Part shown: in pieces, positions 1 to 21,559 of the stretch | Layout: every line of letters starts with the position of its first letter | Numbering within the stretch: the first letter of the stretch is position 1 | From: Aureimonas sp. AU22 | GTDB lineage: Bacteria; Pseudomonadota; Alphaproteobacteria; Rhizobiales; Rhizobiaceae | Assembly: GCF_001463745.1 (NCBI RefSeq) | Contig: NZ_BBWJ01000010.1 | Span: forward strand, 1-64,000 | Direction of reading: 5' to 3' | Length of the DNA: 64,000 nucleotides | Notes under the pieces: model-generated | Database searches by the model: none | What the model was told of the DNA's origin: nothing | The model's input: the letters and a program-made list of their open reading frames with translations, nothing else | Position numbers and translations under genes: made by a program

Positions 1-108
1 GGGCACAGGATTGATGCCGGTGGACAGGTCGAGCCAGTCCTCGCGCCGCCCGCCGAAGCGCGCGATCGCCGCGCCCAGCGCCCCGCCGTGGACGAGATGC
101 GCGCTCAC
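1..108 (-). CDS. cobC: Threonine-phosphate decarboxylase-type aminotransferase, 5' end only
   Basis: Only the first 36 codons are inside the window; the gene runs off the left edge. Reading from a GTG at 108 the protein begins MSAHLVHGGALGAAIARFGG and continues to a DLSTGINPVP stretch. This is the usual N-terminus of the PLP-dependent CobC/CobD family, which supplies (R)-1-amino-2-propanol phosphate for the nucleotide loop of cobalamin. The GTG start overlaps the last codon of cobB by four bases, so the two are probably translationally coupled at the end of a minus-strand operon. The PLP lysine lies outside the window, so the call rests on the N-terminal motif and on context. Confidence 0.82.
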   Translation of the reverse strand, partial: MSAHLVHGGALGAAIARFGGRREDWLDLSTGINPVP

Positions 109-1412
109 GTGCGGTCGACCACGTGGATGTAGGAGCCGGACACGCGCCCGCGCCGAAGACCGACGCCGCCGAGGGCTTCGCCGAGCGCATCCGCGGCCTC
201 GAACAGCCGCTCGCCCTCGCCCTCCCCGACGATCGTGGAATAGTGGAACTCGTGGCCGACGAGCGGCCCTTCCCAGGGACCGCCCGGCAGCGCCGTCAGC
301 CGGCGATAGCCGAGATGGAGGCGCTGCGTGGCGAAGGAGGTGACGAGCGGCAGGAAGCCGAGCATCGGATGGCGCCGACCTCCGGCGTCCTCCAGCACGT
401 CGCCGAGAACCATGTAGCCGCCGCATTCGCCATAGATCATGGCATTTCGCTCGCGCGCTCGCGCCATGCCGGCGTGAAACCCGCCGGCCTCGGCGATGCG
501 ACCGGCATGAAGCTCGGGATAGCCCCCCGGCAGGAATACGGCATCCGCCGTGGCGTCCGGTCCTTCGCCAGCGAGCGGCGAGAAGAACGACAGCGCCGCC
601 CCCGCCTTATGCCAGCCATCGAGGAGGTGGGGATAGGCGAAGGCGAAGGCCTCGTCGCGCGCCACCGCGATTCGGGCACCGAGCGGGGCAAGGCGTGCCG
701 TCGGGGCGATGGGGTTCCGCCGTGGCTGCGCGGATCGAAGCAGCGCTTCGAAGGCCGCCGCGTCCGCGCCCTCGCCGAACCAGTCGGCCGCCCGCTCCAG
801 AAACGCGTCGAGCCCGTCGGTCTCCCCGGCGCCGACGAGACCGAGATGGCGCTCCGGCATCGCCAGCGCCTCGCGCCGGGGCAGCGCGGCGAGGATCGGC
901 AGGCCCAACGGCTCGAGCGCGCCGCGCAGCATCGCCTCGTGCCGCGCGCTGCCGACGCGGTTGAGCGCGAGGCCGCACAGGGGCAGGCCCTCGCGATGGT
1001 CGCGAAACCCTCGCACCAAGGCCGCCACCGAGTGCGACTGCCTGGCGCAATCCACCACGAGGAGCACGGGGAGCCCCAAGATCTCGGCGAGGTCGGCGGC
1101 CGAGCCCGTTCCATCCGCCGCGCCGTCGAAGAGCCCCATCATGCCCTCAACGACGAGGGCGTCGCCACCGGTCTCGGCCAGATCGCGAATCAGCGCGGGG
1201 CGCATGGCATAGGGGTCGAGATTGACGGATGCGCGCCCCGCCGCCACCGCGTGGAAAGCGGGATCGATATAGTCCGGCCCCGCCTTGGCGGGCGCGACAC
1301 CCAGCCCGCGCCGACGCGCCCAGCGCAGGAGTGCCAGGGTGAGAAGCGTCTTGCCGCTGCCCGACTGGGGCGCGGCGACGAGGAGACCGGGACGGGGCGG
1401 AACGACGGGCAT
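105..1412 (-). CDS. cobB: Hydrogenobyrinic/cobyrinic acid a,c-diamide synthase
   Basis: CobB (435 aa from this start) amidates the a and c acetate side chains of the corrin, using ATP and glutamine. The N-terminal dethiobiotin-synthetase-like domain carries the P-loop PQSGSGKT near residue 15. The C-terminal class I glutamine amidotransferase domain shows the nucleophile context YGECGGYMVLG. I chose the ATG at 1412, which gives MPVVPPRPGLLVAAPQSGSGKT as expected for the family; upstream in-frame starts add an unconserved, overly basic leader. The start faces that of cbiD 47 bp away, so the two genes share a very short divergent promoter region. The downstream gene cobC overlaps by 4 bp. The product follows CobH/CbiC in the pathway and in the aerobic route precedes CobN. 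Confidence 0.95.
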   Translation of the reverse strand: MPVVPPRPGLLVAAPQSGSGKTLLTLALLRWARRRGLGVAPAKAGPDYIDPAFHAVAAGRASVNLDPYAMRPALIRDLAETGGDALVVEGMMGLFDGAADGTGSAADLAEILGLPVLLVVDCARQSHSVAALVRGFRDHREGLPLCGLALNRVGSARHEAMLRGALEPLGLPILAALPRREALAMPERHLGLVGAGETDGLDAFLERAADWFGEGADAAAFEALLRSAQPRRNPIAPTARLAPLGARIAVARDEAFAFAYPHLLDGWHKAGAALSFFSPLAGEGPDATADAVFLPGGYPELHAGRIAEAGGFHAGMARARERNAMIYGECGGYMVLGDVLEDAGGRRHPMLGFLPLVTSFATQRLHLGYRRLTALPGGPWEGPLVGHEFHYSTIVGEGEGERLFEAADALGEALGGVGLRRGRVSGSYIHVVDRT

Positions 1413-1459
1413 GATCGGTGGCGCTTTTCGCACGGATGCGCCGCGCCTATAAGCCCCCG

Positions 1460-2578
1460 ATGGGTCTCGATCTCGGCCAGCGCCGCACAGGAACAAGCGA
1501 AACGCGGGACGGCGTGCCGCTGCGGCGCGGCTGGACCACGGGCGCCTGCGCCACCGCCGCGACCAAGGCCGCGCTCGCCGCGCTCCTCACCGGGGAATTC
1601 CCCGATCCCGTCGAGATCGTCCTGCCCAAGGGCGAGCGGCCCGCCTTCCCGCTGGCGCGCACCGCGCTCACGCAGGCGCAAGCCTTCGCCGCCATCGTCA
1701 AGGACGCCGGCGACGACCCCGACGTCACGCACCTCGCCGAAGTCGGCGCGCGCGTGCGCTTCGGCCCGCCGGGCAGCGGCATCGTGTTCCGCGCAGGGCC
1801 GGGGGTCGGCACGGTGACGCGGCCGGGCCTGCCGATCCCGCCCGGCGAGCCGGCGATCAACCCGGTGCCCCGCGCCCTGATGCGCGCCGAGGTCGAGGCG
1901 CTCTGCGCCGTCCACAGGCTTGCGCCGGACGTCGAAATCTCGATCGAGGTGCGGGACGGCGAGCGGCTGGCGGAGCGGACCTGGAACGGGCGGCTCGGCA
2001 TCCTCGGCGGGTTGTCGATCCTCGGCACGACGGGGATCGTTCACCCGTTCTCGTGCTCGGCCTGGATCCATTCGATCCATCGCGGCATCGACGTCGCGCG
2101 CGCCTCTGGGCTTGCCCATGTCATCGGCGCGACGGGTTCCACCAGCGAGGACGCGGCGCGACGCCTGTATCCCGAGCTTCCCGACATCGCCTATCTCGAC
2201 ATGGGCGACTTCGCCGGCGGCGTCCTGAAATACCTTCGCCGCCACCCGGTGCCGCGGCTGACGCTGATCGGCGGGTTCGCCAAGTTCACCAAGCTCGCGC
2301 AGGGGTCGCTCGACCTTCACTCGGGACGCAGCCAGGTGGACCCCGGCTTCCTGCTCGCCCTCATGGGCGAGGTCGCGGCCGAGACGCGGGGCGCCGTGCT
2401 CGGCGCCAACACGGCGAAGGAGGTGCTGGACCTTGCCGCCGGGGTAGGGCTGGATCTCGCCGCGCCCGTCGCATCGAAGGCGCTCGCGACGGCGCGCGAC
2501 GCGCTCGGCGATGCGCCGTGCCGCGTCGAGGTGCTGGTGACGGACCGGGCGGGCGGGGTGATCGCGCGTGCCGTCTAG
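1460..2578 (+). CDS. cbiD: Cobalt-precorrin-5B C1-methyltransferase
   Basis: CbiD (372 aa) is the SAM-dependent enzyme that methylates C1 of the ring-contracted macrocycle in the early-cobalt pathway. The diagnostic N-terminus LRRGWTTGACATAATKAA and the later GTTGIVHPFS and GGFAKFTKLAQG stretches identify it. I chose the ATG at 1460 (MGLDLGQ) over one at 1418, because the longer start would place 14 unconserved residues in the divergent promoter region shared with cobB. Its end overlaps the GTG start of cobK. The presence of CbiD rather than CobF for C1 methylation matters for deciding which corrin route is used. Length and motifs match the family. Confidence 0.93.
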   Translation: MGLDLGQRRTGTSETRDGVPLRRGWTTGACATAATKAALAALLTGEFPDPVEIVLPKGERPAFPLARTALTQAQAFAAIVKDAGDDPDVTHLAEVGARVRFGPPGSGIVFRAGPGVGTVTRPGLPIPPGEPAINPVPRALMRAEVEALCAVHRLAPDVEISIEVRDGERLAERTWNGRLGILGGLSILGTTGIVHPFSCSAWIHSIHRGIDVARASGLAHVIGATGSTSEDAARRLYPELPDIAYLDMGDFAGGVLKYLRRHPVPRLTLIGGFAKFTKLAQGSLDLHSGRSQVDPGFLLALMGEVAAETRGAVLGANTAKEVLDLAAGVGLDLAAPVASKALATARDALGDAPCRVEVLVTDRAGGVIARAV

Positions 2579-3317
2579 AGAAGCGCTCGGCGTCCTGATC
2601 CTCGGCGGCACGGCGGAAGCCACGGCGCTCGCGATCCGTCTGCACACGGAACGCCGCGTCGAGCGACTCGTGCTGTCGCTGGCCGGCCGCACCCTTCGAC
2701 CCGATCTGCCCGAAGGGGTCGAAGCCCGCATCGGCGGCTTCGGCGGCGCGGCGGGCCTTGCCGCCTATCTCGCAGCGGAAGGCATCACCCATCTCGTGGA
2801 CGCGACGCATCCGTTCGCGGCGGGTATTTCGCGCAATGCGGCGGAGGCAGCGCTTGCGGCCGGCGTGCCGCGCCTCGCGCTCCATCGCCCCGGCTGGGAC
2901 GCGCGTCCCGGCGACCGGTGGGTCCACGTCGCGTGCCTGAAGAGTGCGTGCGACGCCCTGCCCCCCGGCGCACGGCCGTTTCTGGCGCTGGGCCGGCAGC
3001 ACATCGCGCCGTTCCGCCACCGACCGGATCTGCGACCCGTCCTGCGGATGGTGGATCCGCCGGACGCGCTGCCCTTCGCGGCCGACCTCGTTCTCGGCAA
3101 ACCGGGGGACGCGGCATCCGAGATCGCGCTGTTCGCAGGAAAAGGCATCACCCACGTCGTCTGCCGCAACGCAGGCGGCGCGGCGTCCTACGCGAAGATC
3201 GAGGCTGCGGGGGCTCTCCGGCTTCCCGTCGTCCTCATCGACCGCCCGCCCGCCCCACCGCCGCCGATGGTGGCGAGCGTCGAAGAGGCGGTCGCGTGGC
3301 TCCGGAGAACGCCCTAG
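2568..3317 (+). CDS. cobK: Precorrin-6A / cobalt-precorrin-6A reductase
   Basis: CobK/CbiJ (249 aa) is an NADPH-dependent reductase of the macrocycle between C1 methylation and C5/C15 methylation. The N-terminal VLILGGTAEATALA motif is characteristic, as are the ITHLVDATHPFAAGIS and ITHVVCRNAGG blocks. The start is a GTG at 2568 inside the last codons of cbiD, which implies translational coupling. The gene converges on cobM: both stop codons are TAG and are read from the same palindromic CTAG at 3314-3317, so the genes overlap tail to tail by four bases with no room for a terminator. Confidence 0.93.
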   Translation: MPSREALGVLILGGTAEATALAIRLHTERRVERLVLSLAGRTLRPDLPEGVEARIGGFGGAAGLAAYLAAEGITHLVDATHPFAAGISRNAAEAALAAGVPRLALHRPGWDARPGDRWVHVACLKSACDALPPGARPFLALGRQHIAPFRHRPDLRPVLRMVDPPDALPFAADLVLGKPGDAASEIALFAGKGITHVVCRNAGGAASYAKIEAAGALRLPVVLIDRPPAPPPPMVASVEEAVAWLRRTP

Positions 3318-4093
3318 CCGGCCGACTTGCCGCGGACGGAGCGCAGGATATGGGGATGCGCCGCGTCGTAGAGCTTGGAGTCTATGAACCCCTCGGCGCC
3401 CAATGCCCGGCCGACCAGCACGAGCGCCGTACGGGTGAGCTTGGCCTTGCGCACCTTGCGGGCCACGGTGGCGAGCGTCGCGTGGATGAAGGCTTCGTCC
3501 GGCCAGCCGACGCGATAGGCGACGACCACCGGGCAGTCCGGTCCATAGGCCGGCAAGGGCGAGAGTTCGCGCTCGATATGGGCGAGGTTGCGGATCGACA
3601 GGTGGATCGCGAGCGTCGCGCCGCTCCGGCCCAATGTCGCCAGGTCCTCGCCCGCCGGCATGGCGGAGGACTTCATCGCCGTGCGTGTCACGATGACGCT
3701 CTGGCAGACCTCGGGGATCGTCAGCTCCTGCCGGAGCGCGGCGGCCGCCGCCGCAAAGGCGGGCACGCCCGGCGTCACGTCGTAGGCGATCCCCAGTGCG
3801 TCCAGACGGCGCATCTGCTCGGCCGTCGCGCCGTAGATCGACGGATCGCCGGAATGGACGCGCGCCACATCGAGGCCGGCCGCATGGGCGGCCTCCATCT
3901 CGGCGACGATCTCGTCGAGATGCATCGGCGCCGTGTCGAGGACGCGGGCGCCCTCGGGCGCCGCCTTCACGATCTCCTCCGGCACCAGCGACCCGGCATA
4001 GAGACAGACCGGGCAACGCTCGATGAGGCGAAGCCCGCGGACGGTGATGAGGTCGGGCGCGCCGGGTCCGGCACCGATGAAATGAACGGTCAC
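3314..4093 (-). CDS. cobM: Precorrin-4 C11-methyltransferase
   Basis: This is a 259-aa SAM-dependent tetrapyrrole methylase that methylates C11. The N-terminal loop GAGPGAPDLITVRG is the family signature, and MHLDEIV, VHSGDPSIYGA and YDVTPGVPAFAAAAAAL are conserved SAM-site blocks. The gene is the last of the minus-strand operon cbiX-cobH-cobL-cobI-cbiG/cobJ-cobM. Its ATG overlaps the stop of cbiG-cobJ by 4 bp (ATGA). The same family includes CbiF, the cobalt-precorrin-4 enzyme; sequence alone cannot separate the cobalt-loaded from the metal-free substrate. Confidence 0.95.
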   Translation of the reverse strand: MTVHFIGAGPGAPDLITVRGLRLIERCPVCLYAGSLVPEEIVKAAPEGARVLDTAPMHLDEIVAEMEAAHAAGLDVARVHSGDPSIYGATAEQMRRLDALGIAYDVTPGVPAFAAAAAALRQELTIPEVCQSVIVTRTAMKSSAMPAGEDLATLGRSGATLAIHLSIRNLAHIERELSPLPAYGPDCPVVVAYRVGWPDEAFIHATLATVARKVRKAKLTRTALVLVGRALGAEGFIDSKLYDAAHPHILRSVRGKSAG

Positions 4094-5895
4094 GATCCGA
4101 TCCCCGATCCGGCCTTCGCGGCATAGCCGCGCGGCGTGTAGGCATAGGTGCGCCCCTCACCGCTCGTGAAGGCGCGCGTGTTGGTGGAGCCGACGACGAC
4201 CACGGTCAGCATGTCGACCTCGTCGACCGCGAGATGCTGCAATTCCACGATGCGGACGCTCTCGCCCTCGCGCCCGAGATTGGTGGCGAGCACCACCGGC
4301 GTCTCGGCCGGGCGATGGCTGAGCAGCACGTCGCGGGCGTGGGCGAGTTGCGTGCGGCGGCGCTTCGAAACCGGATTGTAGAAGGCGATCACGAAGTCGC
4401 CCTCGGCGGCCGCCTTCACCCGCCGCTGGATGTCCTCCCAAGGCGTGAGGAGGTCGGACAGCGAGATCGTGCAGAAGTCGTGCCCGAGCGGCGCGCCGGC
4501 CCGCGCGGCGGCGGCCTGCAGCGCCGAGATGCCGGGCGACACTGCGATCGCGACGCGGCGCGCACTGTGAGACACGTCGCCCCGGTCGATCAGTTCGAAC
4601 ACCAGCGTCGCCATCGCGTAGATGCCGGCATCGCCCGAGCAGACGAGCGCGACGTCGCGCCCCTCCGCCGCGAGTTCCAGCGCGAAGCGCACCCGCGCCT
4701 CCTCCGCCCCGAGATCGAAGTCGTGGCGCTGCTTGCCGGTGGCCAAAGGTCCGAGAAGGTCGAGATAGAGCGAGTAGCCGACGAGATCGCTCGCGCGGGC
4801 GACCATGGCGGAGACTTCCGGCGAGCGCCATTGCGCCCCGCCCGGCCCGATCCCGACGACGAAGAGGCTGCCCCGCGCGCGGCCGATCGTGGCCGGATCG
4901 ACGGGCCGGGGCGCCCGGGCAAGGGCCGCCGTCGCGCGCGCCGACTTGCGCTTGGCAACCACGAGGGCGCCGTCCGCTCCCGCGCCGGCGAGCGCCGCGC
5001 CTTCCGAAACGCCGTGGCAGCCGGCTTCCCGGAAGACGACCTCGGATGGGTTCGCCAGCCGCGGCGTTTCCGCCTCCAACCGTGCGGCGTCGAAGAAGCG
5101 GGCGGGCACGCCGTAGCGGGCGGCGACCGCATGGATGGCGGGCTCGTCGGCCTTCAGGTCGAGCGAGGCGACGGCGGCGAGCGACAAGGGGCTGAGGCCG
5201 GATTCCGCCAGCACGCGCTCCGCCAGCGCCACGGCCTCTTCCGGCGGCGCGCCGCGCTCGGCACCGATCCCGAGCACCAGCGTCTTCGGGCGGTAGAGGA
5301 GTTCGAGCGGAGCCGGTTGCCGTGCCGCGTCCGTCACCGACAGTGACACGCGCCCGTCGTCGGAGACGGGGATGGAGGACGCTTCGAGCCAGTCCGCCCG
5401 GCCTTCGATCCAGGCATGCTCGCCGGAGAGGAGTTCGGCCATCACGCCCTTGGCGTCGGCCGGGTTTTCGAGCGCGTAGCCCTCGGGCGGCGCGTCGAGC
5501 GCCACGCCGAAACGCAGGTCGCCGGCCGTGGTGATGGCGGGCGCGACATCGAGGACAACCGCGATGCGGCGTGCGAGATCGTTGGCGCCGTGGTGCCCGC
5601 CGAGGAGCGGCACCACGGCCGAGGCATCCTCGGCCACGCAAAGGACCGGTGGCTCGGTGCCCTTGTCGGCGAGGAGCGGCGCCAGGATGCGGATCAGGGC
5701 GCCCGACGCCATCAGGGCGACGATCGGCCGCCCGGCGGCGAAGAGGGCGCGGATGTGCTCGCCGGCATGGGCAAAGGTCACGTCGGCGCCGGACACGCGC
5801 GTCGTGCCATGCACCTCGCCGCGCAAGGCATCGGCGAGACGACGTGCGAGGGTGGAGGCGGCGGGGCCGAGGCAGAGGATCGCCGGCGTATTCAT
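4090..5895 (-). CDS. cbiG-cobJ: CbiG-CobJ fusion: cobalt-precorrin-5A hydrolase / precorrin-3B C17-methyltransferase
   Basis: This 601-aa protein joins two corrin enzymes. Residues ~1-330 form CbiG: an N-terminal part (GEHIRALFAAGRPIVALMASG), a middle segment, and a C-terminal CobE-like domain starting at LVLGIGAERGA and reaching FREAGCHGVSEGAAL. CbiG opens the delta-lactone and releases the C20-derived two-carbon fragment. Residues ~350-601 form the CobJ/CbiH methylase (FVVGIGPGGAQWRSPE, VCSGDAGIYAMA, FYNPVSKRRRTQL), which contracts the ring and methylates C17. I chose the ATG at 5895, which overlaps the cobI stop by 4 bp. Fusing the two places ring contraction and lactone opening in one chain, and CobM acts between them. 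CbiG acts in the cobalt-early route. Confidence 0.94.
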   Translation of the reverse strand: MNTPAILCLGPAASTLARRLADALRGEVHGTTRVSGADVTFAHAGEHIRALFAAGRPIVALMASGALIRILAPLLADKGTEPPVLCVAEDASAVVPLLGGHHGANDLARRIAVVLDVAPAITTAGDLRFGVALDAPPEGYALENPADAKGVMAELLSGEHAWIEGRADWLEASSIPVSDDGRVSLSVTDAARQPAPLELLYRPKTLVLGIGAERGAPPEEAVALAERVLAESGLSPLSLAAVASLDLKADEPAIHAVAARYGVPARFFDAARLEAETPRLANPSEVVFREAGCHGVSEGAALAGAGADGALVVAKRKSARATAALARAPRPVDPATIGRARGSLFVVGIGPGGAQWRSPEVSAMVARASDLVGYSLYLDLLGPLATGKQRHDFDLGAEEARVRFALELAAEGRDVALVCSGDAGIYAMATLVFELIDRGDVSHSARRVAIAVSPGISALQAAAARAGAPLGHDFCTISLSDLLTPWEDIQRRVKAAAEGDFVIAFYNPVSKRRRTQLAHARDVLLSHRPAETPVVLATNLGREGESVRIVELQHLAVDEVDMLTVVVVGSTNTRAFTSGEGRTYAYTPRGYAAKAGSGIGS

Positions 5896-6623
5896 CGGGC
5901 ATTCCCCTCGTCCAGCGCGCGGAGGATCGCGGGTTCGCCCCCCTTGTAGAGAAGGATCAGCGCGAAGTAGGGCGCGCGGGCGTCGGTCTCGGCGAGCGGC
6001 AGGACGCGCTCGCCCGGCTGGCCGATGCGTTCCGCGTAGCTCGCCCGGGCGGTGAGACCCATGTCCGCGATCAATGCCTTCACCCGTTCGAAATGCCGGC
6101 CGAGCTTCAGGATCGCGACGCTCTCCGCCGCCGCGATCGCCGGCCGCAGCGCCTCGTCGGGCAGCGTCGCCGGCAGGACGCAGAAGCGGTCGCCGCGCGC
6201 GCTCAAAGGGCGGCCCGTGCGCGCCGCCGCCGCCATCACCGAGGAGACGCCGGGCACGACCTCCGTGGGATAGCGATGACCGAGGCGGGCGAAGAGCTGG
6301 AGGAACGAGCCGTAGAAGAACGGATCGCCCTCGCACAGGACGGCGACGTCCCGCCCTGAATCGAGCGCGTCGGCGATCTTCGGAGCGGCGAGATCGTAGG
6401 CCCCCTGCCCCGGCGCTCGCTCGCTCGCCATGCAAAGCGGGATCGCGATCTCGACCTGGCCGCCCGGCAGGTGCGGGGCCGCGATCGCGCGCGCAAGGCT
6501 CGTGGCGCCTTCGGACAGCGGATAGGCGATGACCGGCGCCTGGCGCAGGAGCCGCACCGCCTTCAGCGTCAGGAGTTCGGGATCGCCGGGCCCGAGGCCA
6601 AGGCCCAGAAGCCGGCCGGTCAT
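5892..6623 (-). CDS. cobI: Precorrin-2 C20-methyltransferase
   Basis: This 243-aa tetrapyrrole methylase adds the C20 methyl group to precorrin-2 (or cobalt-precorrin-2 in CbiL). The N-terminal GLGLGPGDPELLTLKAVRLL is the family signature, and later blocks VLCEGDPFFYGSF and VVPGVSSVMAAAARTG form the SAM pocket. The ATG at 6623 overlaps the cobL stop by four bases, and its own stop overlaps the cbiG-cobJ start. Size agrees with the usual ~240 aa. Whether the substrate already carries cobalt depends on the CbiX encoded upstream in the same operon. Confidence 0.95.
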   Translation of the reverse strand: MTGRLLGLGLGPGDPELLTLKAVRLLRQAPVIAYPLSEGATSLARAIAAPHLPGGQVEIAIPLCMASERAPGQGAYDLAAPKIADALDSGRDVAVLCEGDPFFYGSFLQLFARLGHRYPTEVVPGVSSVMAAAARTGRPLSARGDRFCVLPATLPDEALRPAIAAAESVAILKLGRHFERVKALIADMGLTARASYAERIGQPGERVLPLAETDARAPYFALILLYKGGEPAILRALDEGNAR

Positions 6624-7834
6624 GGAAGAGCCTTCTTCGTGACATGCCAGTGGGTGACGGGCATCGACGCCCGCCAGCCGCGATAGGGGCCGACGGGCTC
6701 GGCGGCCGCCACCGAGACGCGCAGGAGTTCGCCCCCGTGGACCTCGTGGAGCGCGAGGAGGATCGCCTCCGATTCGAGCGTCACCGCATGGGCGACCAGC
6801 CGCCCGCCGGGTTTCAGGGCGCCGAAGGCCGCGGGAAACAGCCCGTCCGTCAGCCCGCCGCCGAGAAACACGGCGTCGGGGGCGGGCAGCCCATCGAAGG
6901 CGTCCGGGGCGCGGGCGGGGACGATGGCGAGGCCGACCGGCGCGAGGCGCTCGGCGTTCTCGGCGATCATCGCCCGGCGCGCTTCGACGGGCTCGATGGC
7001 GATCGCTCGGCCACCCGGCGCGGCGCGCAGCCATTCCACCGAGATCGAGCCGCATCCGGCGCCGACGTCCCAGAGAAGCTCGCCCGGCATCGGCTCGAGC
7101 GCCGAGAGCGCCAGCGCGCGCAGGGTTCGCTTCGTCATCTTGCCGTCGTGGCGGAAGGCGTCGTCGGGCAGGCCGGCGACCGTGGAGCGGGCACGGCGGC
7201 CCGCGTCAGCCCGGCATTCGAGCGCGATCGTGTTGAGATCGGCGATGGCCTGGAGATCGAAGCCAGCTGCCTTCGCCTCGCGGATCCGCTCGGCCGCGCC
7301 GCCCATGTGCTCCAGCACATGGAGGCGGCTTGTCCCGAACCCGCGCGCCGCGACGAACGCCGCGAGGCGCGTGGCGGATGCGCCGTCCTCCGACAGAAGC
7401 AGCAGGCGCGCGCCGTCGCGCAATTCGGGGACGACCGCTTCCAGCGGCCGGCCATGGATCGACACGCAGCGCACATCCTCCAGCGCCCAGCCGAGCCGTG
7501 CGGCGGCCAGCGAAAAGGCGGAGGGTGCGGGAAGAACCGCGAACGCGCCGGGCTCGATCACCTCGCGCAGCCAGCGCGCCGGGCCGAACCAGGACGGATC
7601 GCCCGTCGCCAGCACCACCGCGCGGCGCCCGCGCGCGGCCAGGATGTCGGGTGCCGACGCGGCGAAGGGCGAGCGCCAGGGACGTCGCTCGGCCGGATGG
7701 TCCGCGGGTAGCAGCGCCAGGTGACGGGCGCCGCCGAAGACGATCTCCGCCGCGGCGAGGACGCGCGCGGCTTCGGGCGAAAGGGTCTCGATCCCGCCGT
7801 CGCCGATGCCGACGAGATGCAGCCAGGGCGTCAT
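6620..7834 (-). CDS. cobL: Precorrin-6Y C5,15-methyltransferase (decarboxylating)
   Basis: CobL (404 aa) is a two-domain enzyme. Residues ~1-200 are the CbiE tetrapyrrole methylase (LVGIGDGGIETLSPEA, VVLATGDPSWFG), which methylates C5/C15. Residues ~210-404 are the CbiT Rossmann methyltransferase (MTKRTLRALALSALEP, LLWDVGAGCGSISVEWLRA), which also decarboxylates the ring-C acetate. Both SAM sites are intact. I took the ATG at 7834 (MTPWLHLVGIGDGG); it overlaps the cobH stop by 4 bp, matching the spacing of the rest of the operon. The fused CbiE-CbiT form is typical of alphaproteobacteria. Confidence 0.95.
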   Translation of the reverse strand: MTPWLHLVGIGDGGIETLSPEAARVLAAAEIVFGGARHLALLPADHPAERRPWRSPFAASAPDILAARGRRAVVLATGDPSWFGPARWLREVIEPGAFAVLPAPSAFSLAAARLGWALEDVRCVSIHGRPLEAVVPELRDGARLLLLSEDGASATRLAAFVAARGFGTSRLHVLEHMGGAAERIREAKAAGFDLQAIADLNTIALECRADAGRRARSTVAGLPDDAFRHDGKMTKRTLRALALSALEPMPGELLWDVGAGCGSISVEWLRAAPGGRAIAIEPVEARRAMIAENAERLAPVGLAIVPARAPDAFDGLPAPDAVFLGGGLTDGLFPAAFGALKPGGRLVAHAVTLESEAILLALHEVHGGELLRVSVAAAEPVGPYRGWRASMPVTHWHVTKKALP

Positions 7835-8481: not shown

Positions 8482-8488
8482 CGGCGCC

Positions 8489-14309: not shown

Positions 14310-14340
14310 CTGGCCTCCCGCTTCGTCTATCCTCGCGCAC

Positions 14341-14550: not shown

Positions 14551-14595
14551 GTTGCCAAGGCGGCCATTCCGGTCGCCGTCACGGAGGTTGAACCC

Positions 14596-14769
14596 ATGAC
14601 CGCTTCGCCGATCGCTCAGAGCCGATCCATCTCCGCGCGCCTGCCGGCCGCGATCCTCGCCTTTGCCGCGGGCGCCTTTCTCCTGTGGGGCGCGGGCTTT
14701 GCCGGCGCCGACGCGCTGCACGACACCGCGCACGACGCGCGCCATGCCATGGGACTTCCCTGTCACTGA
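14596..14769 (+). CDS. cbtB: Cobalt transporter subunit CbtB
   Basis: This 57-aa protein has one membrane helix (about residues 15-38) and a short histidine-rich C-terminus, DALHDTAHDARHAMGLPCH, that suits metal binding. CbtB is the small partner of CbtA in a predicted B12-regulated cobalt uptake system. The ATG at 14596 is preceded by GGAGG ten bases upstream; a longer frame from 14521 would translate through the riboswitch B12 box and is rejected. It is the first gene after the riboswitch and cbtA follows. Confidence 0.92.
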   Translation: MTASPIAQSRSISARLPAAILAFAAGAFLLWGAGFAGADALHDTAHDARHAMGLPCH

Positions 14770-14880: not shown

Positions 14881-14902
14881 GCCGGGCCGAAAGGGATCTC
14901 CC

Positions 14903-15616
14903 ATGCTCGCACGCTTCTTTCTGGCCGCGCTTCTGGCCGGCATCCTCGCCGGCGTCTTCGTCACGCCGATCCAGCATCTCAAGACGACGCCGCTGATCCT
15001 CGCCGCCGAAACCTTCGAGACCGGCGGCGAGGCGCACGACCACGCCGCCCTCCTCCCGAGCCTAATATCGCCCGCCCATGCCCACGGCACGGCGGAAGCG
15101 GCAGAGCCCGGCACAGCGGCGCGGATCGGCGGCACGCTTCTCGCCAACATCGTCATCGGCGCGGCCTTCTCGCTTCTGATCCTGGCCGCGAGCCTCGGCC
15201 TCGACCGCCCCGTGACGGCCGCCAACGGCGCGCTCTGGGGGCTGGCCGGCTTCGCCGTCGTCACGCTCGCCCCGGCGATCGGCCTGCCGCCCGAACTGCC
15301 GGCGATGCCGGCGGCCGATCTCGCGGCCCGCCAGACGTGGTGGCTCGCGACGGTCGCCCTGTCGGCCGGCGGGCTGTGGCTCCTCGTGTTCCGCCGGTCA
15401 GTGCCGGCCGTGGTCGGCGGGCTGGCGCTTCTCCTCCTGCCCCATCTCGTCGGCGCCCCGCACCCAGCCGACATCGCGAGCCCCGTGCCCGCAACGCTCG
15501 CCGCCGAGTTCGCCGTCGCCTCGCTCGTCGTGTCCGCCCTGTTCTGGGCGGCGGTCGGCGGGCTTCTCGGCCTGGCGCTCGATCGTGCGCGACGTGGGGC
15601 GACCGTGCCGGCATGA
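14903..15616 (+). CDS. cbtA: Cobalt transporter subunit CbtA
   Basis: This integral membrane protein (237 aa) begins [20 protein letters not shown], then has the conserved [12 protein letters not shown] loop, a His-containing segment ([20 protein letters not shown]) and several further hydrophobic helices. CbtA is the main membrane component of the predicted cobalt importer. The ATG at 14903 follows an AAGGGA ribosome site. Its stop overlaps the ATG of cobP (ATGA), tying cobalt uptake to the cobalamin genes downstream. Confidence 0.9.
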
Positions 15617-16125
15617 GCCTTCACTTCGTTCTCGGCGGAGCGCGCTCCGGAAAAAGCGCCTTCGCCGAGCGGCTCGTCCGGGACAGCGGCCTCGAGCCGC
15701 TGTATCTCGCCACCGGCCGCGCCTTCGACGCGGAGATGGAAGCGCGCATCGCCGAGCATCGCGAACGGCGACCACCCCCCTGGACGACGGTGGAGGAGCC
15801 CCTCGATCTCGCCGAGGCGATCGGCCGCGAGGCGCGGGAGGGGCGCGCGATCCTCGTGGATTGCCTGACCCTCTGGCTGACCAACCTGATGCTGGAGGAG
15901 CGGGACATCCCCGCTGCGTTCGACGCGCTGGACGGCGTCCTGCGAACGCCCCTTCCCGGCCTCGTCGTCCTCGTCTCCAACGAGGTCGGCCTCTCCATCG
16001 TGCCGGAGAACCCGATGGCGCGGACCTTCCGCGACGATGCCGGTCGTCTCCACCAACGTGTCGCGGCCCTGGCCGGCGAGGTGACCTTCGTCGCCGCCGG
16101 TCTGCCGCTGAAACTCAAGGGCTGA
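15613..16125 (+). CDS. cobP: Adenosylcobinamide kinase / adenosylcobinamide-phosphate guanylyltransferase
   Basis: This 170-aa bifunctional enzyme (CobP, called CobU in enterics) phosphorylates adenosylcobinamide and attaches GMP. The P-loop [15 protein letters not shown] is at residue ~5, and [15 protein letters not shown] and [16 protein letters not shown] are diagnostic. Size is typical. The ATG overlaps the cbtA stop, and cobW follows after four bases, all within the riboswitch-led operon. Confidence 0.95.
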
Positions 16126-16129
16126 TCCC

Positions 16130-17206
16130 ATGCAGAAGATTCCCGCCACCGTGATCACCGGCTTCCTCGGCGCCGGCAAGACGACGCTGATCCGCAACCT
16201 CCTGCAGAACGCCGGCAGCCGGCGCATCGCACTCGTCATCAACGAGTTCGGGGACCTCGGCGTCGACGGCGACATCCTCAAGGGCTGCGGCGTAGAGACC
16301 TGCCGCGAGGAGGACGTCGTGGAACTCACCAACGGCTGCATCTGCTGCACCGTCGCGGACGACTTCATCCCAACGATGGAGAAGCTTCTGGAACGCGCCG
16401 ACCGGCTCGACCACATCGTGATCGAGACCTCAGGGCTAGCCCTGCCCCAGCCGCTCGTCGCCGCCTTCAACTGGCCCGAGGTCAAGGCGCGGGTCACCGT
16501 GGACGGCGTCGTCACCGTGATCGACGCCGCGGCGGTCGCCGCCGGGCGCTTCGCCGACGACGAGGCCAAGGTCCAGGCGGCGCGCGAGGCCGACGAGAGC
16601 CTCGACCACGACAACCCGCTGGAGGAACTCTTCGAAGACCAGATCCGCGCCGCCGACCTCCTCGTCCTCAACAAGGCGGACCTCGTGGATGCCGCGACCC
16701 TCTCCGACGTTCGCGCCAAGGTGGAGGCGGAGGCCGGGCGCAGGCTCGCCGTCGTCTCAGCCGAGAACGGCCGCCTGCCGGCCGACGTGCTGCTCGGCCT
16801 GAAGGCGGGGACGGAGGATCTCATCGGGGAGCGCCGCTCGCATCACGAGATCCACCATGCGGACGGGCACGCGCACGACCACGAGGACTTCGAGAGCTTC
16901 GTCGCGGACGGGGGCGAAGTCGCCTCGATCGAGACGCTGACCGAGGCCCTGCGGGCGATCATCGCAGGCCATGACATCCTGCGCCTCAAGGGCTTCGCCG
17001 CCATCCAGGGCAAGCCGATGCGCCTCGTCGTCCAGGCCGTGGGCCAGCGCATCGAGACCTATTTCGACCGGCCCTTCGCGCCGGGTGAAGCCCGCGAAAC
17101 GCGGCTCGTCGTGATCGGCCTGCACGATGCGATCGAGGACGGCGAAGCCGCGATCCGCGATGCCGTCCGGGCCCTCGGCGAAAGCCCCCGCGCGGCGGCC
17201 GAGTAG
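16130..17206 (+). CDS. cobW: CobW, metal-handling G3E GTPase
   Basis: CobW (358 aa) is a G3E-family P-loop GTPase proposed to deliver cobalt to the cobalamin cobaltochelatase. It shows Walker A TGFLGAGKTTLIRNLL, the metal-binding GCICCTV (CXCC), the base-recognition NKADL, a histidine cluster HHEIHHADGHAHDHED near residues 240-260, and the CobW C-terminal domain. It lies one base before the cobN TTG start, supporting a direct link with CobN. Confidence 0.95.
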   Translation: MQKIPATVITGFLGAGKTTLIRNLLQNAGSRRIALVINEFGDLGVDGDILKGCGVETCREEDVVELTNGCICCTVADDFIPTMEKLLERADRLDHIVIETSGLALPQPLVAAFNWPEVKARVTVDGVVTVIDAAAVAAGRFADDEAKVQAAREADESLDHDNPLEELFEDQIRAADLLVLNKADLVDAATLSDVRAKVEAEAGRRLAVVSAENGRLPADVLLGLKAGTEDLIGERRSHHEIHHADGHAHDHEDFESFVADGGEVASIETLTEALRAIIAGHDILRLKGFAAIQGKPMRLVVQAVGQRIETYFDRPFAPGEARETRLVVIGLHDAIEDGEAAIRDAVRALGESPRAAAE

Positions 17207-17207
17207 C

Positions 17208-20200
17208 TTGCACCTCCTCAGCCTCCAGCGCGGGACGATTGCGGACGGGCGCGAGGCGGTGGACCTCGGCCAGACGAGGGCGCGCGTCCTCGTGCTGTCG
17301 GCCGCCGATACCGAACTGGCCGCGCTGGCCTTCGCCGCCGACCGGCTGCGCCTGGGCGACGACGATCTGCGTCTCGCCAACCTCCTGCGCCTTCAGCACC
17401 CGATGTCGGTGGACACCCATGTCGCGCGCATGGCGCCGCATGTGCGGCTCGTGGTCGTCCGGCTGCTCGGCGGCGCCGCCTACTGGCCCCACGGCTGCGA
17501 GGCCTGGAGCGCGGCGGCGCGTCGACACGGCTTCGCGCTCGCCGTCCTGCCGGGCGACGACCGGCCCGACCCCGGCCTCGACCACTTCTCGACGTTGCCC
17601 GAGGCCGAGCGCGACCGGCTCTGGGGCTACCTTCGCGAAGGCGGCGCGGCCAACGCCGATGCCTTCCTGCGCTCCGCCGAGGCGCTGGCGGACGGCTTGG
17701 CGCCGGACGAGGCGCCCGCGCGTCCGATCCTCAAGGCCGGGCGGTTGGAGCGCCCCCACGCGCCCCCACCCGATCCCGCACGCCCGCTCGCGGCGATCAC
17801 CTTCTACCGCGCACTCGTTCAGAGCGGGCAGACCGACGTGGTGGAGGCCCTGGCGCAGGCGCTGGAACAGCGCGGCTTCGACGTGCTGCCCGCCTATGTC
17901 TCGGGGCTGAAGGACCCGGTCAGCGTCGAGACGCTGCGCGCCCTGTTGGCGCGGCGCCCACCCGCCGTCGTTGTCAACCTCACGGGCTTTGCGATCTCCG
18001 CGCCCGCCCGCCCCTTCGTCCCGACGGTTCTTGACGAGAGCGGCGCGATGGTGCTCCAGGGCGTTCTGGCGGGCACCACGCGCGAGGCTTGGGAGGCCTC
18101 CGCCCAAGGGCTCTCCGCGCGCGACCTCGCGATGAACGTCGCGCTGCCGGAAGTGGACGGGCGGGTGCTGACCCGGGCGCTCGCCTTCAAGTCGGCCGGC
18201 GAATGGCACGCGCGGACGCAGAGCGACATCGTCGCCCATCGGCCGGAACCCGGCCGGATCGCCTTCACGGCCGAACTGGCGGCGCGCTGGGCGGCGCTTC
18301 GCGGCACGCCGCCGCCCGAGCGGCGCGTCGCCATCATCCTCGCCAACTATCCCAACCGCGACGGTCGGCTCGGCAACGGCGTCGGGCTCGACACGCCGGC
18401 CGGCACGCTGGAAGTGCTGCGTGCCATGGCCGAGGCCGGCTACGACACTGGCGCCCTTCCGGCCAGCGGCAACGCCCTCATCGAGCATCTCCTGGCCGGG
18501 CCGACCAATGCCGGCCGGACGGCACGCGAGATCCGCGAGACGCTGTCGCTCGCGGACTACCGCCGCGCCTTCGACGCCCTGCCCTCCGCCGTGCGGAACG
18601 CGGTGACGGAGCGCTGGGGCGCGCCGGAGGACGACCCGTTCTTCGACCCCGCGCACGGCTTCGCCCTGCCGCTCGCTCGCCTGGGCCGGGTTGTCGTCGG
18701 CATCCAGCCGGCACGCGGCTACAACATCGACCCGAAGGACACCTATCACGCGCCGGACCTCGTGCCGCCGCACGGGTATCTTGCGACCTATGCCTTCCTG
18801 AGGGAGAGCTTCGGTGCGCAGGCGATCGTGCACATGGGCAAGCACGGCAACCTCGAATGGCTGCCCGGAAAGGCGCTGGCGCTCTCCGACGCCTGCTTCC
18901 CCGAGGCGGTGCTCGGCCCCCTGCCCCATCTCTATCCCTTCATCGTCAACGATCCCGGCGAGGGCAGCCAGGCCAAGCGGCGCTCGGCGGCCGTGATCGT
19001 CGACCACCTCACCCCGCCGCTGACGCGTGCGGAAAGCCACGGACCGGCGAGAGATCTCGAACGGCTGGTGGACGAATACTACGAGGCGAGCCAAGGCGAT
19101 TCCCGCCGCATCGCGCTCCTCAAGCGGCAGATCGTCGATCTCCTCGGCGAAACCGGCCTTGGCTCTGACGCCGGCCTGGCCGCGGACGAAGCCGACGACG
19201 CGGCGCTCGAAAAGCTCGACGCCTGGCTCTGCGACCTGAAGGAAATGCAGATCCGCGACGGGCTGCATGTCTTCGGGCAAGCACCCGAGGGTCGGCTCCT
19301 CACCGATCTTGCCGTCGCGCTCGCCCGCCTGCCGCGCGGGCTCGAGGCCGCCGACGCCTCGCTCCTGCGCGCGCTGGCGGGTGATCTGGTCTTGAGCGAC
19401 TTCGATCCGCTGGACTGCCTGATGGGCGAGCCGTGGGAGGGCGCGCGGCCCGCGCTTCTGCAGGACCTCACGGCCGATCCCTGGCGCACGAAGGGCGATA
19501 CCGTGGAGCGGCTGGAACTTCTTGCCGCGCGTCTCGTCTCGGGCGAGCGGGGATCCGAGCCCGGTTGGACGGCGACCCTCCCCGTGCTCCACGAGATCGA
19601 GGCGCAGTTGAAACCCGCCGTCACCGCCTGCGGCCCTGCCGAGATCGCAGGGCTCTTGGCGGGTCTCGACGGCCGCTTCGTGCCCCCCGGCCCCTCCGGC
19701 GCGCCGACGCGGGGGCGGCCGGACGTGCTTCCGACGGGGCGCAACTTCTTCTCCGTCGACACGCGCGCCGTGCCGACCGAAGCCGCCTGGACGCTCGGCC
19801 GCAAGTCCGCCGAGCTTCTCGTCGCGCGCCACCTCCAGGACCACGGCGAATGGCTGCGCGCGGCCGGTCTCACCTGCTGGGGCACCGCCAACATGCGCAC
19901 CGGGGGCGACGACATTGCCCAAGCGCTCGCGCTGATCGGCGTGAAGCCGACCTGGGACCGCGCCTCGGGGCGCGTCACCGGCTTCGAGATCATCCCCCCC
20001 GCCGCGCTCGGGCGCCCGCGCGTCGACGTGACCTTGCGGATTTCGGGCTTCTTCCGCGACGCCTTTCCCGACCAGATCGCGCTCTTCGACCGGGCGGTGC
20101 GGGCCGTCGGTGCGCTGGACGAGGACGAGGGCGACAATCCCATCGCCGCCCGCATGGCCGAGGAGACGCGCACGCTGGAGAGCGCAGGCCTCGACACTAC

Positions 20201-20921
20201 GCAAGCGAGGCGACGGGCGGGCTATCGCGTCTTCGGCTCCAAGCCCGGCGCCTACGGCGCGGGTCTCCAGGCGCTGATCGACGAGGGCGGCTGGACGACG
20301 CGGGCGGATCTGGCAGATTCCTTCCTCCACTGGGGTGGCTATGCCTACGGCGCGGATGCGGAAGGGGCGTCGGAACGCGCCGCCTTCGAGACGCGGCTCT
20401 CCGCGATCGAGGCGGTAATCCAGAACCAGGACAACCGCGAGCACGACCTTCTGGATTCCGACGACTACTACCAGTTCGAGGGTGGCATGAGCGCCGCCGT
20501 CGAGCACCTCGCCGGCCGCGCCCCCGCCGCCTATCACACCGACCACTCGCGACCCGAGCGCCCGGTGATCCGAACGCTCGACGAGGAGATCGCCCGCGTC
20601 GTGCGTGCGCGCGCCGTGAACCCGAAGTGGATCGCGGGCGTCATGCGCCACGGCTACAAGGGCGCCTTCGAGATGGCGGCGACGGTGGACTACCTCTTCG
20701 CCTTTGCCGCGACCACCAACGCGGTGGCCGATCGGCATTTCGACCTCGTCCACGCCGCCTATCTCGAGGACGAGACGGTCGCCGCCTTCATCGACGCCAA
20801 CAATCCGGCCGCGCTCGCCGAGATGCGGGCGCGCTTTGCCGAGGCCATCGCACGCGGCCTCTGGCATCCCCGCTCCAACTCGGCAAGATTTGCCGGCGAA
20901 ACCCAGGACCCGACCCGATGA
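17208..20921 (+). CDS. cobN: Cobaltochelatase large subunit CobN
   Basis: CobN (1237 aa) is the porphyrin-type binding subunit of the ATP-dependent cobaltochelatase that inserts Co(II) into hydrogenobyrinic a,c-diamide late in the aerobic pathway. The family block IVHMGKHGNLEWLPGKALAL lies near residue 545, and the length agrees with P. denitrificans CobN. I chose the TTG at 17208, one base after the cobW stop, because it yields MHLLSLQRGTIADGREAVDLGQ, the usual family start; an in-frame ATG at 17127 lies inside cobW. Partner subunits CobS and CobT are not in the window. CobO follows with a 4-bp overlap. Confidence 0.94.
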   Translation: MHLLSLQRGTIADGREAVDLGQTRARVLVLSAADTELAALAFAADRLRLGDDDLRLANLLRLQHPMSVDTHVARMAPHVRLVVVRLLGGAAYWPHGCEAWSAAARRHGFALAVLPGDDRPDPGLDHFSTLPEAERDRLWGYLREGGAANADAFLRSAEALADGLAPDEAPARPILKAGRLERPHAPPPDPARPLAAITFYRALVQSGQTDVVEALAQALEQRGFDVLPAYVSGLKDPVSVETLRALLARRPPAVVVNLTGFAISAPARPFVPTVLDESGAMVLQGVLAGTTREAWEASAQGLSARDLAMNVALPEVDGRVLTRALAFKSAGEWHARTQSDIVAHRPEPGRIAFTAELAARWAALRGTPPPERRVAIILANYPNRDGRLGNGVGLDTPAGTLEVLRAMAEAGYDTGALPASGNALIEHLLAGPTNAGRTAREIRETLSLADYRRAFDALPSAVRNAVTERWGAPEDDPFFDPAHGFALPLARLGRVVVGIQPARGYNIDPKDTYHAPDLVPPHGYLATYAFLRESFGAQAIVHMGKHGNLEWLPGKALALSDACFPEAVLGPLPHLYPFIVNDPGEGSQAKRRSAAVIVDHLTPPLTRAESHGPARDLERLVDEYYEASQGDSRRIALLKRQIVDLLGETGLGSDAGLAADEADDAALEKLDAWLCDLKEMQIRDGLHVFGQAPEGRLLTDLAVALARLPRGLEAADASLLRALAGDLVLSDFDPLDCLMGEPWEGARPALLQDLTADPWRTKGDTVERLELLAARLVSGERGSEPGWTATLPVLHEIEAQLKPAVTACGPAEIAGLLAGLDGRFVPPGPSGAPTRGRPDVLPTGRNFFSVDTRAVPTEAAWTLGRKSAELLVARHLQDHGEWLRAAGLTCWGTANMRTGGDDIAQALALIGVKPTWDRASGRVTGFEIIPPAALGRPRVDVTLRISGFFRDAFPDQIALFDRAVRAVGALDEDEGDNPIAARMAEETRTLESAGLDTTQARRRAGYRVFGSKPGAYGAGLQALIDEGGWTTRADLADSFLHWGGYAYGADAEGASERAAFETRLSAIEAVIQNQDNREHDLLDSDDYYQFEGGMSAAVEHLAGRAPAAYHTDHSRPERPVIRTLDEEIARVVRARAVNPKWIAGVMRHGYKGAFEMAATVDYLFAFAATTNAVADRHFDLVHAAYLEDETVAAFIDANNPAALAEMRARFAEAIARGLWHPRSNSARFAGETQDPTR

Positions 20922-21559
20922 GCGAGAAATCCCCGCTGCTGGCCGCCATGACCGAGGACGAACTCGACGCCCGCCACGCCGAGAAGATGAAGAAGAAGAA
21001 GGCGGCGCGCGACAAGATCCTGGCGACGAAGACGCAGGAAAAGGGACTCGTCATCGTCCACACCGGCAAGGGCAAGGGCAAGTCGACGGCCGCCTTCGGC
21101 CTCGTCTTCCGCGCGCTCGGCAACGGCATGAAGGTCGGCATCGTCCAGTTCGTGAAGGGCAAGTGGGAGACCGGCGAGCGGCAGGCGCTCGAGCGCTTCC
21201 CCGGCGAAGTCACGATCACCGCCATGGGCGACGGCTTCACCTGGGAGACGCAGGACCGCCAGCGCGACATCGCCGCGGCAAGGCAGGCCTGGGAGCGCGC
21301 CAAGGCGCTGATAACGGACGAGGAGCACCAGATGGTGGTGCTGGACGAACTCAACATCGTCCTGCGTTACGAATACATTCCCGTCGAGGAGGTCGTGGAC
21401 TTCCTTCGCGACCACAAGCCGGAGATGAAGCACGTCGTCATCACGGGCCGCAACGCGCGCGACGAACTCATCGAGTTCGCCGATCTCGTGACCGAGATGG
21501 AGATGGTCAAGCACCCCTTCCGCTCCGGCATCAAGGCGCAGCGCGGCATCGAGTTCTGA
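20918..21559 (+). CDS. cobO: Cob(I)yrinic acid a,c-diamide adenosyltransferase
   Basis: CobO/BtuR (213 aa) transfers the 5'-deoxyadenosyl group of ATP to Co(I) corrinoids. The P-loop HTGKGKGKSTAAFGL lies near residue 49, and QFVKGKWETGER and VVLDELNIVL are conserved. A lysine-rich N-terminal stretch (residues ~24-31) precedes the core. It is the last gene of the riboswitch-led operon. Its stop is only four bases from that of the convergent NDH-2 gene, leaving no obvious terminator. Confidence 0.95.
   Translation: MSEKSPLLAAMTEDELDARHAEKMKKKKAARDKILATKTQEKGLVIVHTGKGKGKSTAAFGLVFRALGNGMKVGIVQFVKGKWETGERQALERFPGEVTITAMGDGFTWETQDRQRDIAAARQAWERAKALITDEEHQMVVLDELNIVLRYEYIPVEEVVDFLRDHKPEMKHVVITGRNARDELIEFADLVTEMEMVKHPFRSGIKAQRGIEF

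What the first reader, a model, noticed from the sequence alone, without database searches (positions are those of the whole stretch)
1..21559. Mixed cobalamin pathway: early-cobalt and late-cobalt enzymes encoded together
The window encodes CbiX (early cobalt insertion), CbiD and CbiG, which belong to the 'anaerobic' route, together with CobN, CobW, CobO and a CobB/CobQ set that fit late ATP-dependent cobalt insertion. Neither cobG (precorrin-3B synthase) nor cobF is visible. Either the cell uses an early-cobalt route and CobN has another job, or it switches between routes with oxygen.
Basis: partly seen in the sequence, partly recalled or inferred. Interest (0 to 1): 0.72.

Follow-up and report, generated by a model that had tools for sequence, protein, structure and literature searches.

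The report
Two cobalt-loading systems, one B12 cluster
This bacterium (probably an Aureimonas) carries both known machines for putting cobalt into vitamin B12: the early one sits where relatives keep an oxygen-using enzyme, and the late one is still there and looks intact, so why both are kept is a sharp and testable puzzle.

Summary
The gene content is as described: CbiX, CbiD, a CbiG-CobJ fusion, the other Cob enzymes, CobW, CobN and a B12 riboswitch lie at 105-21559. The near-complete genome also has CobS and CobT, but no CobG, CobF or CobZ.

It is not a one-off. In 249 genomes of the order, CbiX (85) never occurs with a true CobG, yet CobN is in 85 of 85. cbiX takes the cobG slot beside cobH. 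In 26 matched genomes the ring-building enzymes split into a CbiX and a CobG group, while CobN does not (p-AU 6e-47). So cassettes were exchanged around a resident CobN, with no fixed residue difference between backgrounds.

Best reading: ring contraction is oxygen-free and cobalt-early through a CbiX-L-type chelatase, and CobNST-CobW has a retained B12-linked job whose nature is open. Oxygen switching is not supported, since no oxygen-using ring-contraction enzyme was found in this genome. The Paracoccus-type siroheme ferrochelatase is excluded by active-site layout; a SirB-like metal preference is not. Mixed gene sets are already in print; I did not find the exchange pattern in the papers I could search.

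The parts
105..1412 (-). cobB/cbiA, a,c-diamide synthase
   Evidence: NF002204 446 bits over cut-off 254; Pfam CbiA and GATase_3; start chosen by eye
1418..2578 (+). cbiD, C1-methyltransferase
   Evidence: NF000849 478.8 bits, cut-off 348
2568..3317 (+). cbiJ/cobK, precorrin-6A reductase
   Evidence: NF005968 263.6 bits, cut-off 231
3314..4093 (-). cobM/cbiF, C11-methyltransferase
   Evidence: TIGR01465 312.9 bits, cut-off 259.65
4090..5895 (-). cbiG-cobJ fusion: lactone hydrolase plus C17-methyltransferase (ring contraction)
   Evidence: Pfam CbiG_N, CbiG_C, TP_methylase; TIGR01466 285.1 bits, cut-off 246.35
5892..6623 (-). cobI/cbiL, C20-methyltransferase
   Evidence: TIGR01467 193.8 bits, cut-off 163.25; best model NF004647 (precorrin-2 type) 226.5 vs best cobalt-factor-II model 107.9, both under their own cut-offs
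6620..7834 (-). cobL (CbiE-CbiT)
   Evidence: TIGR02467 140.6 and TIGR02469 95.7 bits, both over cut-off
7831..8481 (-). cobH/cbiC, precorrin-8X methylmutase
   Evidence: NF006136 291.7 bits, cut-off 276
8489..9634 (-). cbiX, long class-II chelatase with MNCQMC motif and His-rich tail
   Evidence: PF01903 165.5 bits over cut-off; motif, His pair and tail
10636..12132 (+). cobQ, cobyric acid synthase
   Evidence: NF001989 608 bits, cut-off 273
14327..14563 (+). cobalamin riboswitch, upstream of cbtB-cbtA-cobP-cobW-cobN-cobO
   Evidence: RF00174 97.4 bits, gathering 31.5
14596..14769 (+). probable cbtB, cobalt transport
   Evidence: open frame with a C-terminal MGLPCH; name by position and recalled motif, not family-scanned
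14903..15616 (+). cbtA, cobalt transporter subunit
   Evidence: TIGR02458 231 bits, cut-off 183
15613..16119 (+). cobP/cobU, adenosylcobinamide kinase
   Evidence: NF004469 202 bits, cut-off 161; end set by the in-frame stop near 16119
16130..17206 (+). cobW, cobalt metallochaperone GTPase
   Evidence: TIGR02475 527 bits, cut-off 332
17127..20921 (+). cobN, large subunit of the late cobalt chelatase (start not settled; the frame overlaps cobW)
   Evidence: TIGR02257 1645 bits, cut-off 822
20918..21559 (+). cobO, corrinoid adenosyltransferase
   Evidence: TIGR00708 235.9 bits, cut-off 167.75; PF02572 240.7

Best explanation
The cluster is an early-cobalt, oxygen-independent ring-building cassette (cbiX-cobH-cobL-cobI-cbiG.cobJ-cobM, with cbiD, cobK, cobB) set into a late-cobalt framework (riboswitch-cbtBA-cobP-cobW-cobN-cobO here, cobS-cobT on another contig). 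CbiX, a CbiX-L-type class-II chelatase, most likely loads cobalt into sirohydrochlorin, which lets CobJ contract the ring without CobG; CbiG opens the lactone and CbiD methylates C1. Historically the cassette and the CobG cassette were exchanged around a resident CobN. CobNST-CobW is not debris: it has been kept in every CbiX-L genome sampled in the order and does a B12-linked job at the a,c-diamide stage. Shown: gene content, absences, exclusion of CbiX and CobG, constant CobN, cassette exchange, conserved CobN residues. Inferred: that CbiX inserts cobalt, the order of reactions, and any present job of CobN (loading or reloading of metal-free a,c-diamide, or holding the a,c-diamide for CobO).
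For: Complete early-route gene set and no CobG/CobF/CobZ in a 99.83% complete genome. In 61 genomes CbiX 31, CobG-type hits 20, overlap 0. In 249 genomes of the order CbiX 85; 3 overlap with the CobG model list and all 3 are NirA by scan (640-647 bits, over cut-off). CobN in 85 of 85, including six genomes of 1.3-1.5 Mb (G039, G090, G127, G161, G214, G237); CbiG in 82 of 85. cbiX directly 5' of cobH in 93 of 96 CbiX loci with a cobH (3 at a contig edge), cobG there in 19 of 21 CobG loci. Same 26 genomes: cassette tree has CbiX rows on one side of a branch, support 100, one change; CobN tree needs 4 changes and one group is rejected, p-AU 5.8e-47. CobN: 129 columns invariant in 22 CobG-genome proteins, 109 of these also invariant in 24 CbiX-genome proteins, 0 with another residue. 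CbiX: N-terminal His pair, MxCxxC in 102 of 104, His-rich tail, as described for CbiX-L (PMC7689651, passages).
Against: The only cobalt job known for CobN is late insertion, which an early route makes needless. The His layout is shared by SirB, and the best solved relatives are SirB ferrochelatases (92.7 bits); CbiX reaches no NCBIfam cut-off (best 65.6 of 120). CobI and CobH score best with precorrin-type models. At X/G-discriminating positions an outside early-cobalt panel sided with the CbiX group at 30 and with the CobG group at 25: not decisive. G059 has CbiX and a CobZ over cut-off. 126 of 164 CbiX-less genomes also have CobN, 14 of them with no CobG-model hit. CobN of G222 has one in-frame TGA. 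In G047 an early-type cluster with a distant CbiX (31% identity) has no CobN.
Confidence: 0.5

Rival explanations
1. Hybrid route: CbiX takes over CobG's place in enabling ring contraction, but the cobalt of the finished vitamin is put in late by CobNST with CobW, as in CobG genomes.
For: CbiX excludes CobG, not CobN. CobN shows no fixed residue difference between backgrounds. Among positions conserved in both groups, CobI, CobJ and CobM differ at 35 of 226 and the later enzymes CobK, CobL, CobH and CobB at only 6 of 287 (Fisher p 2.5e-8; sites share a tree, so p is nominal): the later enzymes look as if they meet the same ring in both. CobW, tied to late and not early insertion in PMC10206600 (abstract and passages), is kept in the riboswitch operon. 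Four Aureimonas genomes pair CbiX with CobF.
Against: No known chemistry gives a metal-free contracted ring without CobG or CobZ; it would need metal removal or an unknown enzyme, for which I saw no candidate gene. The later enzymes may simply be indifferent to the central metal.
Confidence: 0.2
2. CobN is a leftover kept by operon position, with no present function.
For: cobN lies beside cobO and cobW in a shared operon in the window and upstream of cbiX on one strand in 48 of 95 loci.
Against: 85 of 85 CbiX genomes keep it, also strongly reduced ones; conserved residues are kept; pairwise dN/dS in ten Aureimonas CbiX genomes median 0.30, 0.09-0.44, untrimmed alignment.
Confidence: 0.08
3. 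CbiX is a sirohydrochlorin ferrochelatase for siroheme, and an unknown enzyme replaces CobG in a late-cobalt pathway.
For: Alphaproteobacterial CbiX of Paracoccus type is the siroheme ferrochelatase (PMC4063343, abstract and sections 8-9); best solved relatives here are SirB.
Against: The Paracoccus type has its His pair in the C-terminal half, here it is in the N-terminal half, with R and T in the other half. The genome has its own CysG (520.7 bits, cut-off 400). 19 of 30 CbiX-less genomes of the 61 still show a sulfite/nitrite-reductase-type hit (hand count), so siroheme need does not follow CbiX. cbiX sits in the cob operon and excludes CobG.
Confidence: 0.1
4. The cell switches between an early and a late route with oxygen.
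For: Both chelatases are encoded; in the window only the cobN operon follows the riboswitch found by Rfam.
Against: No CobG or CobZ in the genome; without one no known late route exists. In 3 of 6 other loci scanned one riboswitch precedes cbt-cobW-cobN-cobO and then cbiX on the same strand, so the split is not general.
Confidence: 0.05

Closest known systems
Early-cobalt (anaerobic) pathway with CbiX-L, as in Bacillus (Priestia) megaterium
   Same: Full step set including CbiX, CbiG, CbiD, CbiJ; CbiX with N-terminal His pair, MxCxxC and His-rich tail (PMC7689651, passages)
   Different: CobN, CobS, CobT and CobW are also present and CobN always accompanies this cassette in the order
Late-cobalt (aerobic) pathway of Pseudomonas denitrificans / Rhodobacter
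   Same: CobN, CobS, CobT, CobW, CobH slot order, riboswitch operon
   Different: No CobG, CobZ or CobF; cbiX in the cobG slot
CobG genomes with CbiD and a CbiG-CobJ fusion (here G036, G054, G069; P. aeruginosa is recalled as similar)
   Same: CbiG-CobJ fusion, CbiD, CobN
   Different: They have CobG and no CbiX; their CobI, CobJ group with CobG genomes
Published mixed gene sets: Halonotius (PMC6719526) and Antarctic Chlorobium (PMC8620254), passages seen
   Same: Genes of both routes in one genome; CobG missing in Halonotius; cobN beside an early set in Chlorobium
   Different: Other phyla; no cassette exchange or CbiX/CobG exclusion reported in the passages I saw
Paracoccus-type CbiX siroheme ferrochelatase (PMC4063343)
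   Same: Same chelatase superfamily and gene name
   Different: Active-site histidines in the opposite half; no report there of an MxCxxC/His tail in the sections I read

Membership tests
CbiX-L cobaltochelatase | Two-domain class-II chelatase with the active-site His pair in the N-terminal half | tested here: met
   GHGS in 103 and the second His motif in 100 of 104 CbiX loci; window sequence; shared with SirB, so not specific
CbiX-L cobaltochelatase | MxCxxC motif and His-rich tail | tested here: met
   MNCQMC in the window; MxCxxC in 102 of 104 loci, 12-53 His after it in those 102
CbiX-L cobaltochelatase | Inserts cobalt into sirohydrochlorin | not testable with these tools
   Metal preference cannot be read from the sequence; nearest solved relatives are ferrochelatases
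Paracoccus-type CbiX ferrochelatase | Essential His pair in the C-terminal half | tested here: not met
   C-terminal half has R and T at these places; definition from PMC4063343 section 8
Early-cobalt pathway | Chelatase plus CbiL/H/F/G/D/J/T/E/C/A equivalents | tested here: met
   CbiG by Pfam cut-offs only
Early-cobalt pathway | Ring-building enzymes of the cobalt type | tested here: inconclusive
   30 positions for, 25 against; CobI and CobH prefer precorrin-type models
Late-cobalt pathway | CobG or CobZ for the oxygen-dependent step | tested here: not met
Late-cobalt pathway | CobN, CobS, CobT and CobW | tested here: met
   All over cut-off
CobN cobaltochelatase | Over TIGR02257 cut-off with conserved residues of CobN from CobG genomes | tested here: met
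   1645 bits; 109 of 109 shared invariant columns identical

The most novel reading that the evidence does not exclude
In this order B12 is made by a third, hybrid route: a CbiX-L chelatase replaces CobG in the same operon slot and makes oxygen-free ring contraction possible, while CobNST-CobW still inserts the cobalt that ends up in the vitamin. CbiX and CobN would then be sequential partners, not alternatives, which explains why CbiX-L never occurs without CobN and never with CobG, and why only CobI, CobJ and CobM, not the later enzymes, differ between the two cassettes.
Probability: 0.2. Interest if true: 0.88.

Novelty: new variant of a known kind. Interest (0 to 1): 0.62.

Why it matters
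The two cobalt chelatases are taught, and used in genome annotation, as markers of two separate B12 routes (for example the CbiK/X versus CobN rule in PMC6593275, passages). Here they are found together in every CbiX genome of a 249-genome sample of an order of common soil, plant and marine bacteria, while the oxygen-using enzyme is what gets replaced. That turns a vague 'mixed pathway' into a clear question: what does CobN do in a cell with CbiX? It also says that CbiD, CbiG or CobN alone cannot be used to call the route, and that the CobG model's cut-off admits NirA nitrite reductases.

Tried and rejected
Rejected: the 144.9-bit CobG hit of the own genome (sulfite/nitrite-reductase type). 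Rejected: three apparent CbiX+CobG genomes (NirA). Rejected as a marker: CobS, present in 61 of 61 genomes and in Caulobacter. Tried without a decision: comparing the positions that separate CbiX from CobG cassettes with outside early and late enzymes (30 to 25; all 60 positions late-like in the late panel, early panel mixed). The early panel was named by absence of cobG near the gene; Haloarcula and Kovacikia records carry no annotation, and Kovacikia CobJ is late-like at several positions. Tried: phmmer against solved structures for CbiX, CobJ, CobM, CobI; CobM carries GDPxxYG like B. megaterium CbiF, not the R. capsulatus CobM letters, although overall score favours the latter (294.7 against 169.9 bits). 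Literature: 8 searches; Rodionov 2003 is not held, so its statement that cobalt insertion and the CobG/CbiG and CobF/CbiD steps vary is recalled only.

Limits: one search scored at most 7 candidates a genome, at most 23, at most 8. Only 46 CobN and 26 matched genomes were put on trees. The 8-change count on the 46-row CobN tree is from a FastTree run with midpoint root. Structure prediction and fold search were not used.
Full report
What is there. The window is G000:C10:1-64000 of a 4.63 Mb, 85-contig, 99.83% complete assembly. The cluster runs from cobB (105) to cobO (21559): a minus-strand block cbiX-cobH-cobL-cobI-cbiG.cobJ-cobM, a short plus-strand pair cbiD-cobK, cobB on the minus strand, and a plus-strand block riboswitch-cbtB-cbtA-cobP-cobW-cobN-cobO, with cobQ, TauE, a cytochrome b561, an SDR and an AAA_28 ATPase between. 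CobS and CobT lie on contig C12 and CysG on C6.

Absences. CobG, CobF and CobZ were sought in the whole genome: best 144.9, 29 and 28.8 bits under cut-offs of 234.8, 195.8 and 372.6. The CobG-model hit is a sulfite/nitrite-reductase-like protein. chlI and chlD were not searched.

How general it is. In the window's genome and 60 relatives, CbiX (window core as query) is in 31, CobG-type hits of 184 bits or more in 20, overlap none; CobN is in 30 of the 31, the exception being G047, whose CbiX is distant (31% identity). Of the 31, 26 have CbiD, 4 (all in the window's genus) have CobF instead, one fragmented assembly shows neither. In 249 genomes of the order (tallied), 85 have CbiX at E 1e-40. 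Three of them also appear in the CobG list; I fetched these and all are NirA. CobN is in 85 of 85, and in 126 of the 164 others. CbiG is in 82 of 85; the three misses are G150, G180 and G221 (61-93% complete). The pattern includes six genomes of only 1.3-1.5 Mb. Against a neat story: G059 has both CbiX and a CobZ over cut-off, in an assembly with 6% contamination; 14 CobN genomes have neither CbiX nor a CobG-model hit; one CobN has an in-frame TGA. CobZ was not sought in the 249.

Slot and exchange. Of 80 named loci around the fusion (up to 10 kb each side), none shows CobG by tblastn. cbiX is directly 5' of cobH on the same strand in 93 of 96 loci that have cobH (3 edge cases); in CobG loci the gene there is cobG in 19 of 21, with one divergent case and one edge. 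In 48 of 95 cbiX loci cobN and cobO lie upstream on the same strand; cobO or cobQ is the next recognised gene in 17, at 336-6467 bases. A conjugative plasmid of Rhizobium leguminosarum carries the CobG cassette without cobN, which shows that the cassette can travel alone.

Trees. For the same 26 genomes (8 CbiX, 18 CobG), the joined CobI, CobJ, CobM, CobL and CobH rows put the CbiX genomes on one side of one branch (support 100, one change). CobN needs four changes, all forced by well-supported branches, and holding the CbiX rows together is rejected (p-AU 5.8e-47). So the ring-building cassette and CobN have different histories. CobN residues: 129 columns invariant among 22 CobG-genome proteins, 109 of these also invariant among 24 CbiX-genome proteins, none with a different letter; no discriminating column by the rule used. 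All 24 CbiX-genome CobN rows are of the long form; 9 of 22 CobG-genome rows are short, lacking about window residues 734-830. dN/dS in ten Aureimonas CbiX genomes is 0.09-0.44, median 0.30, on an untrimmed alignment.

Where the two cassettes differ. In a matched set (31 thinned CbiX loci of 57 complete, 10 CobG loci), of positions conserved within both groups CobI differs at 7 of 46, CobJ 16 of 76, CobM 12 of 104, but CobK 1 of 48, CobL 2 of 75, CobH 2 of 54, CobB 1 of 110 (Fisher p 2.5e-8 for the first three against the rest; nominal, since sites share a tree). The chemical difference therefore lies mainly in C20 methylation, ring contraction and C11 methylation. This fits an early-cobalt cassette whose later enzymes do not care about the metal, and fits equally a hybrid in which the later rings are alike. 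A direct comparison with outside early and late enzymes was not decisive (30 positions to 25).

What CbiX is. Core 279 aa plus MNCQMC and a His-rich tail. The His pair is in the N-terminal half, as PMC7689651 (passages) gives for B. megaterium CbiX-L; the Paracoccus siroheme ferrochelatase has it in the C-terminal half (PMC4063343, section 8). SirB shares the N-terminal layout and is the nearest solved relative, so metal choice is not proven. CysG in the same genome and siroheme-type reductases in 19 of 30 CbiX-less relatives (hand count) make a sole siroheme role unlikely.

Mechanism. Shown: complete early set, missing oxygen enzyme, cassette exchange, constant CobN. Inferred: sirohydrochlorin is metallated by CbiX, C20-methylated by CobI, contracted by CobJ, C11-methylated by CobM, opened by CbiG, C1-methylated by CbiD, then CobK, CobL, CobH, CobB. 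CobNST-CobW acts, if at all, at the a,c-diamide. I hold the early route with a retained CobN job at 0.5, the hybrid with late insertion at 0.2, siroheme CbiX at 0.1, leftover CobN at 0.08, oxygen switching at 0.05.

Known and new. Mixed gene sets are in print (Halonotius PMC6719526, Chlorobium PMC8620254; passages only), and PMC8123684 warns that cobNST and cbiX/K annotations can be nonspecific (passages). In eight searches of the held library I saw no report of CbiX/CobG exclusion with obligate CobN or of cassette exchange; most subscription papers, including Rodionov 2003, are not held.

Noticed in passing
L016 (G055), L207-L209 (G120, G211, G255): The curated cut-off of the CobG model TIGR02435 (234.8 bits) is passed by NirA-family proteins (316-395 bits for CobG, 640-958 for NirA): automatic CobG calls in this order need a second look.
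   Followed up: yes
L110 and L112 (G004), L095 (Aureimonas altamirensis): These CbiX clusters lack cbiD and show no cobH at its usual place; G004 has a CobF elsewhere (268 bits over cut-off). CobF may replace CbiD beside CbiX and CbiG. CobH elsewhere was not searched.
   Followed up: partly
CobN of 9 of 22 CobG genomes (L143-L151): Short CobN form lacking about window residues 734-830; all 24 CbiX-genome CobN rows are long.
   Followed up: partly
61 genomes: CobS is over its cut-off in 61 of 61 genomes, also where CobN is absent, and in Caulobacter: it probably has another role there.
   Followed up: no
L210 (G222): A CbiX genome whose CobN reading frame has one in-frame TGA.
   Followed up: no
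window 9896-10645 +: A TauE/SafE permease next to cbiX; it recurs beside cbiX in many named loci and near the CobG-type cluster of G036.
   Followed up: no
L206 (Deinococcus taeanensis plasmid): The nearest CbiX outside Proteobacteria on plasmids (40-41% identity) sits in one gene annotated precorrin-8X methylmutase, so probably a CbiX-CbiC fusion, beside a GTP-binding protein.
   Followed up: no
window 21564-22877 -: An NDH-2-like FAD oxidoreductase follows cobO; a homologue is also near the cluster in G004, L027 and L066.
   Followed up: no
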